Shown in pieces: positions 1 through 7,374 of a DNA stretch of 32,544 bases (within the stretch, counting starts at the first letter, position 1; each line of letters opens with the position of its first letter). Under the pieces are notes generated by a model, which saw only the letters and a list, made by a program, of their open reading frames with translations, did not search any database and had not been told where the DNA came from. Made by a program: the position numbers and the translations under genes. The stretch is from Gemmatimonadota bacterium (GTDB lineage: Bacteria; Gemmatimonadota; Gemmatimonadetes; Gemmatimonadales; GWC2-71-9), in NCBI GenBank assembly GCA_003222055.1, contig QHUT01000143.1, forward strand, positions 1-32,544. Direction: 5' to 3'.

Positions 1-276
1 GAGCAGATCCCGCTCGAGGTGCGGGTCGTCACCATTGCCGATTCGTTCGATGCGATGACCAGCGTCCGGCCGTACCGCCCGGCCCTGTCGGTGCAGAAGG
101 CGCTGCAGGAGCTCGACGAGGGAAAGGACACGCAGTTTCATGCGCCGGCCGTGGAGGCATTTCTCGCCGCGTTCCCCGACGCGTCGGCTCTACCGGTCTC
201 GACGCCCGAGATTCAGCCGTTGCATCTTCCCGCACTGTCGCCCGACACGACGCGCCGCTCGCCTCCCGCCCATTAG
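1..276 (+). CDS. HD-GYP domain protein, C-terminal fragment (5' end outside window)
   Basis: The frame is open from base 1, so this is the 3' end of a longer gene. The visible peptide contains VVTIADSFDAMTSVRPYRPA, which matches the end of HD-GYP domains (the family pattern is ADxFDALTSxRPYRxA), followed by a helix and the QFHAPAVEAFLAAF segment that usually ends the domain. HD-GYP proteins are metal-dependent phosphodiesterases that hydrolyse cyclic di-GMP. The HD and GYP motifs themselves lie upstream of the window, so catalytic competence cannot be judged. The last 35 or so residues form a Pro/Ala-rich tail. The TAG stop at 274-276 lies 3 bp before the left inverted repeat of the IS110 element. 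Before that insertion the next gene, ispH, would have started about 13 bp downstream. Confidence 0.8.
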   Translation, partial: EQIPLEVRVVTIADSFDAMTSVRPYRPALSVQKALQELDEGKDTQFHAPAVEAFLAAFPDASALPVSTPEIQPLHLPALSPDTTRRSPPAH

Positions 277-279
277 TCA

Positions 280-292
280 ATATGGAATGACC
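280..292 (+). repeat. Left inverted repeat of the IS110 element
   Basis: ATATGGAATGACC is the exact reverse complement of 1743-1755. The match stops on both sides (293 and 1742 differ; 279 and 1756 differ), so it is a discrete 13-bp repeat. Confidence 0.88.
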
Positions 293-371
293 GGCTCACA
301 TCGCGGATCGTAGGTTACGCGGTGTGAGTTCACCTTCAACCACGCAGAGCTACACGCGAAGGAGCCGGTCT

Positions 372-1484
372 ATGTCTTCCAACCTGCACTATGTGGGCTT
401 GGATGTCCACGCCGAGACGATCGCCGTCGCCGTGGCGGAACCCGACGGCGCGGTCCGCCCCCTCGGGATCATCCCCAATCACCCCGAGGCCGTCGCCAAG
501 TTGCTCCGCAAGGTCGGCCCCCGCGAGCACCTCCAGGTGTGTTACGAAGCCGGCCCCTGCGGCTACGTCCTCTATTGGCAGCTCACCCGGCTGGGGGTGC
601 ACTGCGCTGTGGTGGCGCCGACCCTGATCCCGACCAAGGCGGGCGATCGCATCAAGACCGACCGCCGCGACGCCGAGCGGCTGGCGCGCTGTTTCCGCGC
701 GGGGGATCTGACGCCGGTCTGGATTCCCGATGCGGCGACGGAGGCGCTGCGTGATCTGGTGCGCGCCCGCCAGGCCGCCAAACAGGATCAGCTGCGCGCC
801 CGGCATCGCCTCGGCAAGTTCTTGCTGCGCCACGGGCGCCGGCCCCCCGAGGGGATGCGGGCTTGGACCCAGCGGCACCGGGCCTGGCTCGCCAGTGTCC
901 GGTTCGCGGCCTCGGCCCAGCAGGCCACGCTCCTCGATTACCTCACCGAGGTCGATCACGCTGCCGACCGGATCGGTCGGCTCGACGCCGCGATCGACGA
1001 GGCCGTAGCGGGCGCTCCCCCCGCGCTGCAAACCGTGATCGCGGCGCTGCAAACGCTGCGCGGGATCAAGCAGGTGGCGGCGACCACCATCGTGAGCGAG
1101 GTCGGCACCCTCCGCCGCTTCCGTCATCCTCGCCAGCTGATGGGCTACAGCGGCACCGTGCCCCGCGAGCACTCGAGCGGGAGCACGGTCCGGCGCGGGG
1201 GGATCACGAAGACCGGCAACGCGCACCTGCGGCGGGTGCTGGTGGAGGCCGCGTGGGCGTACCGGCATGGCCCGAGCTGCACCGGAGCGCTCAAACGCCG
1301 CCAAGTCGGGCAGCCTGAGGCCATCACGGCCCTTGCCTGGAAAGCGCAGCACCGTCTGTGTAGCCGCTATCGCCGGCTCGTGGGCCGGGGCAAACCGCAC
1401 CAACACGTGGTGACGGTCATCGCGCGGGAGTTGCTGGGCTTTATCTGGGCCATCGGCGTGGCGGCCGACCCGGTCGCCGCGTAA
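372..1484 (+). CDS. IS110/IS1111-family DEDD transposase
   Basis: A 370-residue recombinase of usual family length. The N-terminal RuvC-like DEDD domain shows D11 in YVGLDVHAE, E59 in CYEAGPCGY, and D97/D100 in KTDRRDAERLA. The C-terminal transposase_20 domain shows TLRGIKQVAATTIVSEVG followed by LMGYSGTVPREHSSG and the ITKTGNAHLRRVLVEAAW block, which carries the catalytic serine region. Family members excise and insert a circular intermediate guided by a structured RNA encoded in the element's own non-coding end. I chose ATG 372 because AAGGAG at 359-364 lies 7 nt upstream and the conserved fold begins at once. A GTG at 324 is in frame but adds 16 low-complexity residues. The gene looks intact, with no frameshift, so the element may be active. 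Confidence 0.93.
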   Translation: MSSNLHYVGLDVHAETIAVAVAEPDGAVRPLGIIPNHPEAVAKLLRKVGPREHLQVCYEAGPCGYVLYWQLTRLGVHCAVVAPTLIPTKAGDRIKTDRRDAERLARCFRAGDLTPVWIPDAATEALRDLVRARQAAKQDQLRARHRLGKFLLRHGRRPPEGMRAWTQRHRAWLASVRFAASAQQATLLDYLTEVDHAADRIGRLDAAIDEAVAGAPPALQTVIAALQTLRGIKQVAATTIVSEVGTLRRFRHPRQLMGYSGTVPREHSSGSTVRRGGITKTGNAHLRRVLVEAAWAYRHGPSCTGALKRRQVGQPEAITALAWKAQHRLCSRYRRLVGRGKPHQHVVTVIARELLGFIWAIGVAADPVAA

Positions 1485-1742
1485 GGCAGGGGAACTGGTG
1501 AGAGAGACTCGGCGCGGCCGCGGGGCACGGGAAGGAGAATCCTTGTTCAATCTATGCGCTCAGGCTCCGGCCGAACGCGCGCCATTAGTCCGAGGTGGCT
1601 CCCGACGGATGACGACCATGCCGGCGTGCGCGAGCACGATCCGCGAATATCAGAATGATCAACCGTCGCGTCAGCCCCGTCGGCCGCGTCCCAGTCTCCG
1701 CACTCCGCTGCCCCTCGTCCGAAGCAGTGGGTAGACTTGACG
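1485..1742 (+). ncRNA. Candidate bridge/seeker RNA region in the right non-coding end of the IS110 element
   Basis: A stretch of 258 bp between the transposase stop and the right inverted repeat holds no convincing ORF. In IS1111-type elements the guide RNA is known to be encoded here. Two short matches support this. CCATTAGTC at 1582-1590 equals 270-278, the target flank just left of the element. ATATCAGAATGA at 1647-1658 matches the right end and flank at 1752-1763 in 11 of 12 positions. The first match sits in the loop of a small GCCA/TGGC hairpin (1581-1584 with 1596-1599). The order, target match before donor match, fits the two-loop layout described for IS621. The partner right-side guides could not be identified, so the boundaries and the RNA itself are inferred. 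Confidence 0.45.
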
Positions 1743-1755
1743 GGTCATTCCATAT
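1743..1755 (-). repeat. Right inverted repeat of the IS110 element
   Basis: GGTCATTCCATAT is the exact reverse complement of 280-292. A TTGACG hexamer lies directly inside it at 1737-1742. In a circularised element it would stand 16 bp upstream of TATGGA from the left end, a plausible junction promoter reading into the transposase. Confidence 0.88.
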
Positions 1756-1767
1756 CAGATTGACGCC

Positions 1768-2976
1768 GTGGAGCAGACCTATTTCCGCCGCGGCTTCGGC
1801 CTCAAGGGCGACATCGAAGGCGCGCTGGCCGCCGATTACCACAGCCGGGTGGTGGACCGGATCCGCGCCCGAGGGTACGCCATCACGCTGGGCGATCTGA
1901 CCTTCAAGCTCGCGCGCGAGTTCGGGTTCTGCTACGGTGTGGACCGGGCCGTCGAATACGCCTACGAGACCCGCACCAAGTTTCCCGACCGGCGTCTGCT
2001 GCTGGTCGGCGAAATCATTCACAATCCGCACGTCAACGCCAAGCTGCGGGGCATGGGCGTCGAGTTCCTGCACCGGCCCGAGGGCGGTGAGTTCGACTTC
2101 GGGAGCGTCACGGCCGCCGACGTCGTGCTGCTGCCGGCGTTCGGCGTCACCGTGCGAGACTTCGAGCGGCTGCGCGCGATCGGGTGTGTGCTGGTGGACA
2201 CCACCTGCGGCTCCGTGCTCAACGTGTGGAAGCGGGTCGACTCCTACGCCAGGGACGGGTTCACCGCCATCATCCACGGCAAGCACTATCACGAGGAGAC
2301 CAAAGCGACGTCGAGCCAGGTGACGAAGTACCCCGGCGGGAGCTACCTGGTCGTGCGAGACATGACCGAGGCGCGCGAAGTCTGCGCCTACGTCGAGGGA
2401 GCGGGGAGCGGGGAGCGCTTCCTGCAGCGCTTCGCCGGCAAGATGTCGCCTGGCTTCGATCCCGATCGGGACTTGGTACGCGTCGGCGTTGCGAATCAGA
2501 CCACCATGCTCTCGGGCGAGTCGCTCGCCATCGCGGCGGAGCTCAGGAAGGCGATGGCCAAGCGCTACGGCGACGCGGCCGTGCCCCAGCATTTCCGCAC
2601 CTTCGACACCATCTGCTCGGCCACGCAGGATCGCCAGGACGCGGTGTTGAAGCTCATCGCGGAGCCGCTCGACGTGATGGTGGTGATCGGCGGATACAAC
2701 TCGAGCAACACGACCCACCTCGCGGCCATCTGCCAGGAGAGAGTGCCCACCTATCACATCGAAGACGCGGCCTGCATCGATCCCGACGCTGACGCCGTCC
2801 GGTTTCGTCCCGTGGGCGCGCACGCCGAGCGCCGCGTGACCGCATGGCTGCCGGCCGGCCAGCTGACTGTCGGCGTGACGGCGGGCGCGTCGACGCCCAA
2901 CAACAAGATCGGTGAGACCATCGAGCGGATCGCGGCGGCGCGCGGGTTGACGCTCGAGGGAATCCTGGGCGGCTGA
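1768..2976 (+). CDS. ispH: 4-hydroxy-3-methylbut-2-enyl diphosphate reductase (IspH/LytB), long form
   Basis: A 402-residue protein catalysing the last step of the MEP (non-mevalonate) isoprenoid pathway, reducing HMBPP to IPP and DMAPP with a [4Fe-4S] cluster. The three cluster cysteines are visible: C55 in EFGFCYGVDRAV, C147 in VDTTCGSVLNVW and C283 in FDTICSATQDRQ. Also seen are GEIIHNPHVN (H85), GKHYHEETKAT, and the GGYNSSNTTHLA block. It is about 80 residues longer than the E. coli enzyme and resembles the long form of cyanobacteria and plants. GTG 1768 gives MEQTYFRRGFGLK, typical of that form's start. The IS110 element ends about 12 bp upstream, so native upstream signals are separated from the gene. 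Residues 210-217 (EGAGSGER) are encoded by a GGGAGCG tandem repeat. Confidence 0.95.
   Translation: MEQTYFRRGFGLKGDIEGALAADYHSRVVDRIRARGYAITLGDLTFKLAREFGFCYGVDRAVEYAYETRTKFPDRRLLLVGEIIHNPHVNAKLRGMGVEFLHRPEGGEFDFGSVTAADVVLLPAFGVTVRDFERLRAIGCVLVDTTCGSVLNVWKRVDSYARDGFTAIIHGKHYHEETKATSSQVTKYPGGSYLVVRDMTEAREVCAYVEGAGSGERFLQRFAGKMSPGFDPDRDLVRVGVANQTTMLSGESLAIAAELRKAMAKRYGDAAVPQHFRTFDTICSATQDRQDAVLKLIAEPLDVMVVIGGYNSSNTTHLAAICQERVPTYHIEDAACIDPDADAVRFRPVGAHAERRVTAWLPAGQLTVGVTAGASTPNNKIGETIERIAAARGLTLEGILGG
2395..2415 (+). repeat. GGGAGCG heptanucleotide tandem repeat within ispH
   Basis: Three near-complete copies of a 7-bp unit encode GAGSGE-type residues in frame. The same 21 bp occur at 7234-7254 inside lhr, again in frame and encoding the same EGAGSGER peptide. 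Confidence 0.75.

Positions 2977-3018: not shown

Positions 3019-7374
<4,356 letters not shown>

What the first reader, a model, noticed from the sequence alone, without database searches (positions are those of the whole stretch)
270..1763. IS110 3' non-coding region contains matches to both the target flank and the element end, as expected for a bridge RNA
CCATTAGTC (1582-1590) equals the 9 bp ending one base before the left end (270-278). ATATCAGAATGA (1647-1658) matches 11 of 12 bases across the right end (1752-1763). Both are in direct orientation and in the order target then donor, which is the expected orientation of the left target guide and left donor guide. The first lies in a predicted hairpin loop. 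If real, the element's programmed target (around ATTAG-TCA-GATTG) can be read from this window. The right-side guides were not found, and the second match runs beyond the presumed crossover.
Basis: partly seen in the sequence, partly recalled or inferred. Interest (0 to 1): 0.6.

Follow-up and report, generated by a model that had tools for sequence, protein, structure and literature searches.

The report
RNA-guided IS1111 insertion sequence
This is a bacterial jumping gene that carries a small guide RNA whose short segments spell out where it inserts; it is a clear but ordinary new member of a recently described kind, and its two flanks here come from two different insertion sites.

Summary
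The matches are real and the guide-RNA reading is right, with corrections. The element is an IS1111-type insertion sequence (275-1756) with a DEDD transposase and a downstream non-coding region. In this window alone the two matches are weak evidence (4% and 10% of shuffles do as well). Comparison settles it: a covariance model built from 20 sequences, the window among them, finds the same RNA in 60 of 64 loci searched, with strong base-pair covariation. The target guides covary with the host flanks (0 of 20,000 permutations as good).

Corrections: (1) the "missing" right target guide is TTCAATCT, 1546-1553, on the 5' side of the same internal loop, in the published IS1111 order. (2) The crossover is at AG, not TCA; empty sites in the same assembly read TTAG|ATTG. 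(3) In CCATTAGTC only ATT-AG reads target; TC matches the element's left end. (4) In ATATCAGAATGA only ATATCAG is the left donor guide. (5) The flanks come from two different native sites, both also present empty in the assembly, so this copy joins halves of two targets (recombination or assembly join). The right donor guide stays unresolved in this clade. New member of a known kind.

The parts
275..1756 (+). IS1111-type element by the published end convention (7-bp left and 3-bp right extensions outside the inverted repeats); 1482 bp
   Evidence: inverted repeats; conserved ends in relatives; empty sites
275..276 (+). left copy of the AG core (crossover region)
   Evidence: native sites read TTAGATTG
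277..281 (+). start of right donor (TCAAT); TC is repeated in the RNA just after the left target guide
282..292 (+). left subterminal inverted repeat ATGGAATGACC (identity extends outward to 280)
372..1484 (+). DEDD transposase, 370 aa from the ATG; Pfam DEDD_Tnp_IS110 + Transposase_20; D11, E59, D97, D100 and the SG motif S269-G270
1534..1668 (+). guide RNA core (bridge/seek RNA), target-binding loop plus donor-binding loop
   Evidence: A1/R1/A2:
1541..1545 (+). 5' strand of helix closing the target loop (pairs with 1591-1595)
1546..1553 (+). right target guide TTCAAT + core complement CT (TCAATCT pairs with AGATTGA 1757-1763)
1582..1590 (+). left target guide: ATT (1584-1586) + AG core (1587-1588) + TC (1589-1590, matches the element's left end); CC 1582-1583 not supported by covariation
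1591..1595 (+). 3' strand of helix closing the target loop
1603..1608 (+). 5' strand of helix closing the donor loop (with 1663-1668)
1610..1619 (+). 5' side of donor loop; right donor guide expected here (TGAC 1610-1613 is complementary to GTCA 276-279) but not supported within this clade
1647..1653 (+). left donor guide ATATCAG, matching the right end 1752-1758
1737..1742 (+). TTGACG, likely -35 box that would meet a -10 in the left end in the circular form
   Evidence: TTGAC within 45 bases of the right core in 49 of 53 loci
1743..1753 (+). right subterminal inverted repeat GGTCATTCCAT (identity extends outward to 1755)
1757..1758 (+). right copy of the AG core
1..276 (+). left flank: 3' end of an HD-domain response-regulator gene whose native copy is on contig C5 with an empty site
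1768..2976 (+). right flank: ispH (lytB); its native upstream with an empty site ends contig C1

Best explanation
An IS1111-type insertion sequence whose downstream non-coding region makes a two-loop guide RNA. [quoted passage not shown] In the donor loop the 3' side (ATATCAG) pairs with the element's right end. With the transposase this brings the circular element's RE-LE junction to sites reading about ATTAGATTGA and exchanges strands at AG. Shown here: the anatomy, the conserved RNA structure, and covariation of the target guides and left donor guide with DNA. Inferred from published work on relatives: transcription, RNP formation, circular intermediate and catalysis.
For: Transposase domains and weak similarity to the solved IS621 and ISCro4 transposases. 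Inverted repeats with 7/3 extensions as in the IS1111 description. One RNA family found in 60 of 64 sources (20 of these were in the model; 40 of the other 44), downstream of the transposase. Structure: 92.8% of cells paired against 79.3% shuffled, 131 double-change cells against 31. Over 42 distinct right guides the five guide positions nearest the core match 20, 30, 36, 37 and 35 times against 11.9, 11.0, 11.5, 16.6 and 11.8 expected; over 39 distinct left guides the nearest three match 23, 36, 37 against 10.5, 16.8, 33.3; 0 of 20,000 permutations reach the totals. This holds with permutation inside transposase clusters. Left donor guide also covaries. Empty sites TTAG|ATTG in the same assembly. 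The element is single-copy in the assembly, and the full predicted 12-mer has no exact copy there.
Against: No RNA, circle or transposition data. Left target guide support covers only three positions, and the nearest is almost invariant (T). The right donor guide is not resolved in this clade (17,461 of 20,000 permutations do as well). Two identical-RNA copies (L075, L076) share few right-flank bases, and one Azospirillum copy (L092) departs after three right-target bases. The transposase is 370 aa against 330-350 given for the family. No Rfam family matches the element.
Confidence: 0.95

Rival explanations
1. The matches are chance; the non-coding region is an unrelated untranslated region.
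For: Single-window odds are unremarkable: 216 of 5000 and 490 of 5000 shuffles give matches as long; single-sequence fold z-score only -1.79.
Against: Conserved covarying RNA and guide-flank covariation.
Confidence: 0.02
2. The element really sits between the HD-domain gene and ispH as one insertion into a single CCATTAGATTGA site, as the window alone suggests.
For: Both flanks fit the guide exactly.
Against: Both native loci are present uninterrupted with different neighbours on C5 and C1; genus relatives have the same motif in front of ispH and, in 5 of 7 HD-gene loci checked, after the HD gene.
Confidence: 0.05
3. The hybrid flanks are a real rearrangement: copies at both sites recombined (or the element-encoded recombinase joined them), linking the HD gene to ispH in one strain. 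This is a rival to an assembly join, not to the guide-RNA reading.
For: Single contig path through the element; left flank differs from C5 by 3 of 276 bases, i.e. another haplotype.
Against: Contig starts only 274 bases left of the core; a repeat-spanning assembly join of two insertion sites would look the same.
Confidence: 0.35

Closest known systems
IS1111 family insertion sequences with seekRNA (ISEc11, ISPa11, ISKpn4; PMC11187229, introduction, results and discussion read)
   Same: DEDD transposase, perfect subterminal inverted repeats, 7/3 extensions, downstream non-coding region, top-strand guide 5' of bottom-strand guide, guides overlapping at the core
   Different: different target (about ATTAGATTGA); 370-aa transposase; no experimental data here
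IS110 group bridge RNA (IS621; PMC11208160 section 12 and passages, PMC11208158 passages)
   Same: two internal loops, target and donor guides each including the core; bases beyond the core that match the other DNA, like the handshake guides
   Different: RNA is downstream rather than upstream, and left/right and top/bottom are in mirror order
ISSfr2-family transposase (annotation of NZ_CP023065.1)
   Same: 51.9% identical transposase followed by the same RNA (L095)
   Different: different guides and target

Membership tests
IS1111 family | DEDD transposase with C-terminal Transposase_20 domain and SG motif | tested here: met
   Pfam; residues D11, E59, D97, D100, S269-G270, placed by motif and the alignment
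IS1111 family | subterminal inverted repeats of 11-13 bp, perfect or nearly so | tested here: met
   13 bp perfect, 280-292 and 1743-1755; 11 bp in the core convention
IS1111 family | asymmetric extensions, 7 bp left and 3 bp right, no target duplication | tested here: met
   fits when ends are set from the empty sites
IS1111 family | long non-coding region downstream of the transposase gene | tested here: met
   1485-1742; RNA 1534-1668
IS1111 family | top-strand guide 5' of bottom-strand guide | tested here: met
   1546-1553 before 1582-1590; order as stated in PMC11187229
IS1111 family | RNA co-purifies with transposase; circular intermediate | not testable with these tools
   needs bench work
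bridge RNA | target loop with left and right target guides covarying with flanks | tested here: met
bridge RNA | donor loop with left donor guide | tested here: met
   positions -3 to -1 covary
bridge RNA | right donor guide | tested here: inconclusive
   supported over all 39 loci and in the 22 loci with other right-donor starts, not in the window's own group of 17 (statistic chosen after inspection)
bridge RNA | handshake guides | tested here: inconclusive
   donor-loop +1 base matches right target +1 in 20 of 43 against 12.5 expected inside 60% clusters (p about 1e-4), but the matches are mostly in another clade; target-loop bases vary only between clades

The most novel reading that the evidence does not exclude
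IS1111 guide RNAs work as a mirror image of the IS110 bridge RNA, down to handshake bases: the target loop's 3' guide continues into bases that match the incoming donor, and the donor loop's 3' guide continues into a base that matches the incoming target. Several right donor guides are interrupted just before the core, as reported for IS621.
Probability: 0.45. Interest if true: 0.5.

Novelty: new member of a known kind. Interest (0 to 1): 0.35.

Why it matters
It gives a clean, alignment-based readout of an IS1111 guide RNA family across about 60 loci (some identical or duplicate), with guide positions, core and donor guide mapped without experiment, and a covariance model that finds it where Rfam has none. 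It shows that a guide can be read from one genome only with care: flanks at one copy may belong to two targets, and bases beyond the core belong to the element. The handshake-like covariation would extend a mechanism described for IS621 to the IS1111 group if confirmed.

Tried and rejected
Crossover at TCA: rejected by empty sites. Whole 9-mer and 12-mer as guides: rejected by covariation (left positions -4 to -8 not significantly above expectation, -4 at p 0.09; donor-loop positions +2, +3 below expectation). Hairpin-loop placement of 1582-1590: only in the single-sequence minimum-energy fold, not in the consensus. Rfam: only a sub-threshold ArcZ hit at 2359-2400, taken as chance. Column-by-column search for a right donor guide gave scattered pairs without a diagonal. 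A later suffix test, designed after looking at the rows, supports one outside the window's clade only. I considered whether TTAGATTG is a promoter motif targeted genome-wide: only 5 sites with a start codon 3-7 bases on, against 0 and 1 in the reversed-pattern control. Rows dropped: one search gave spurious end pairs for about a dozen loci. In one search I replaced these by hand-set conserved end motifs (not using the guides) or left one or both ends blank; L031, L074, L078 and L079 have no ends at all. Four sources lacked the RNA (L021, L028, L033, L096). L071-L073 were left out as repeats of L002, L015, L014; L035 repeats L012. Tests 66, 71 and 75 removed identical guides.

Full report
What is there. 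The element has a 370-aa transposase (372-1484) with both IS110-family Pfam domains, a 13-bp perfect inverted repeat at 280-292 and 1743-1755, and a non-coding region 1485-1742. phmmer against solved structures gives only the ISCro4 and IS621 transposases. It is single-copy in its assembly.

The observation. Both matches are present as stated, but single-window statistics are weak. The decisive addition is TCAATCT at 1547-1553, the reverse complement of AGATTGA at the right junction. PMC11187229 (abstract, introduction, results and discussion read) reports exactly this for IS1111 elements: a top-strand complement 5' of a bottom-strand match, overlapping in the target.

The RNA. Twenty segments (the window and 19 relatives) give a consensus with two domains: GGAG/CTCC and CCTTG/CGAGG close an internal loop that holds 1546-1553 on its 5' side and 1582-1590 on its 3' side, and CGACGG/CCGTCG closes a second loop holding 1647-1653. 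A covariance model finds it in 60 of 64 sources searched (20 of these were in the model, so 40 of the other 44). On 53 distinct rows 92.8% of cells pair (79.3% in shuffles, at most 60.4% when slid) and 16 of 22 pairs show double changes. That alignment is fitted to the structure, which favours it.

The guides. Element ends were set from inverted repeats or conserved end motifs, without looking at guide matches. With 42 distinct right guides, the five positions nearest the core match far above chance, and the core itself covaries (AG with CT, AA with TT). With 39 distinct left guides only the three nearest positions do. Results hold without the window and inside clusters of related transposases. 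In the window's close group alone, 0 of 20,000 permutations reach the right-guide total (15 loci) and 29 of 20,000 the left-guide total (13 loci). The left donor guide covaries with the right end, for example ATAAC and ATCCT variants on both sides.

Ends and core. Native sites settle the core. Contig C5 carries the HD-domain gene followed by ...CCCATTAG|ATTGCCGCCATG of a phosphoglucomutase-like gene (name recalled from its sequence), with 3 differences in 276 bases from the window. Contig C1 ends in ...CCGGTTAG|ATTGACGCCGTG of ispH, identical to the window for the 63 shared bases from AG on. All eight ispH loci of the genus that I read carry TAGATTG in front of ispH, and 5 of the 7 HD-gene loci checked show TTAGATTG. 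The guide-predicted CCATTAGATTGA fits C5 at 11 of 12 and C1 at 10 of 12 bases; no exact copy is in the assembly.

Hybrid flanks. The window copy therefore has the left half of the C5 site and the right half of the C1 site. Either copies at both sites recombined in one strain, or the assembler joined two insertions through the element. I cannot tell without reads. In both cases the same guide has probably been used at two places.

Copies with identical RNA. Three copies in G093 share CAT (left) and CGTGTGCTTCTGCTG (right). Four Azospirillum copies share the right CAG, three of them CAGGTCGCGGAAAAA, with lefts ending CGCTT or CGCCT. Two Lichenicola copies share CT on the left and TGTTT one base into the right flank. 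L075 and L076, from two genomes, share ACT on the left but little on the right. This is mostly in line with guide-directed targeting; the last pair is a partial exception.

Beyond the core. After the left target guide the RNA repeats the element's left-end bases (TC here, AC or AA in others): 38 and 31 of 40 match, but inside 60% clusters this is no more than expected, so it may be shared descent. After the left donor guide the first base matches the first right-target base in 20 of 43 against 12.5 expected inside clusters (p about 1e-4), driven by another clade. These positions mirror the handshake guides of IS621 (PMC11208158, passages). In my searches of the open PMC library I saw, from listings only, no paper that reports handshake guides for IS1111; the one paper there that uses the term names IS1111 only in its references.

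Verdict.

Noticed in passing
1-276 and 1757 on; L104, L112: The window's left and right flanks belong to two loci that are also present without the element elsewhere in the same assembly, so the contig joins halves of two insertion sites.
   Followed up: partly
L104, L112, L127-L129: TTAGATTG lies 3-7 bases before a start codon at five places in the assembly (0 and 1 in reversed-pattern controls), including both target sites; it may be a -10-like element of leaderless genes.
   Followed up: partly
L024, L026, L034, L037, L083-L086, L090-L093: In these relatives the right core reads AA (the left, where known, AG), and the right guide carries TT instead of CT, so the exchange point probably lies just after the A.
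   Followed up: no
1737-1742: TTGAC stands near the right end in 49 of 53 loci with a known right end, where the circular form would place it upstream of the transposase gene, like the junction promoter reported for ISEc11.
   Followed up: partly
L016 around 3523-3900: This relative's end pair lies 1706 bases apart, with extra sequence between the transposase and the RNA, and a run of N inside the donor loop.
   Followed up: no
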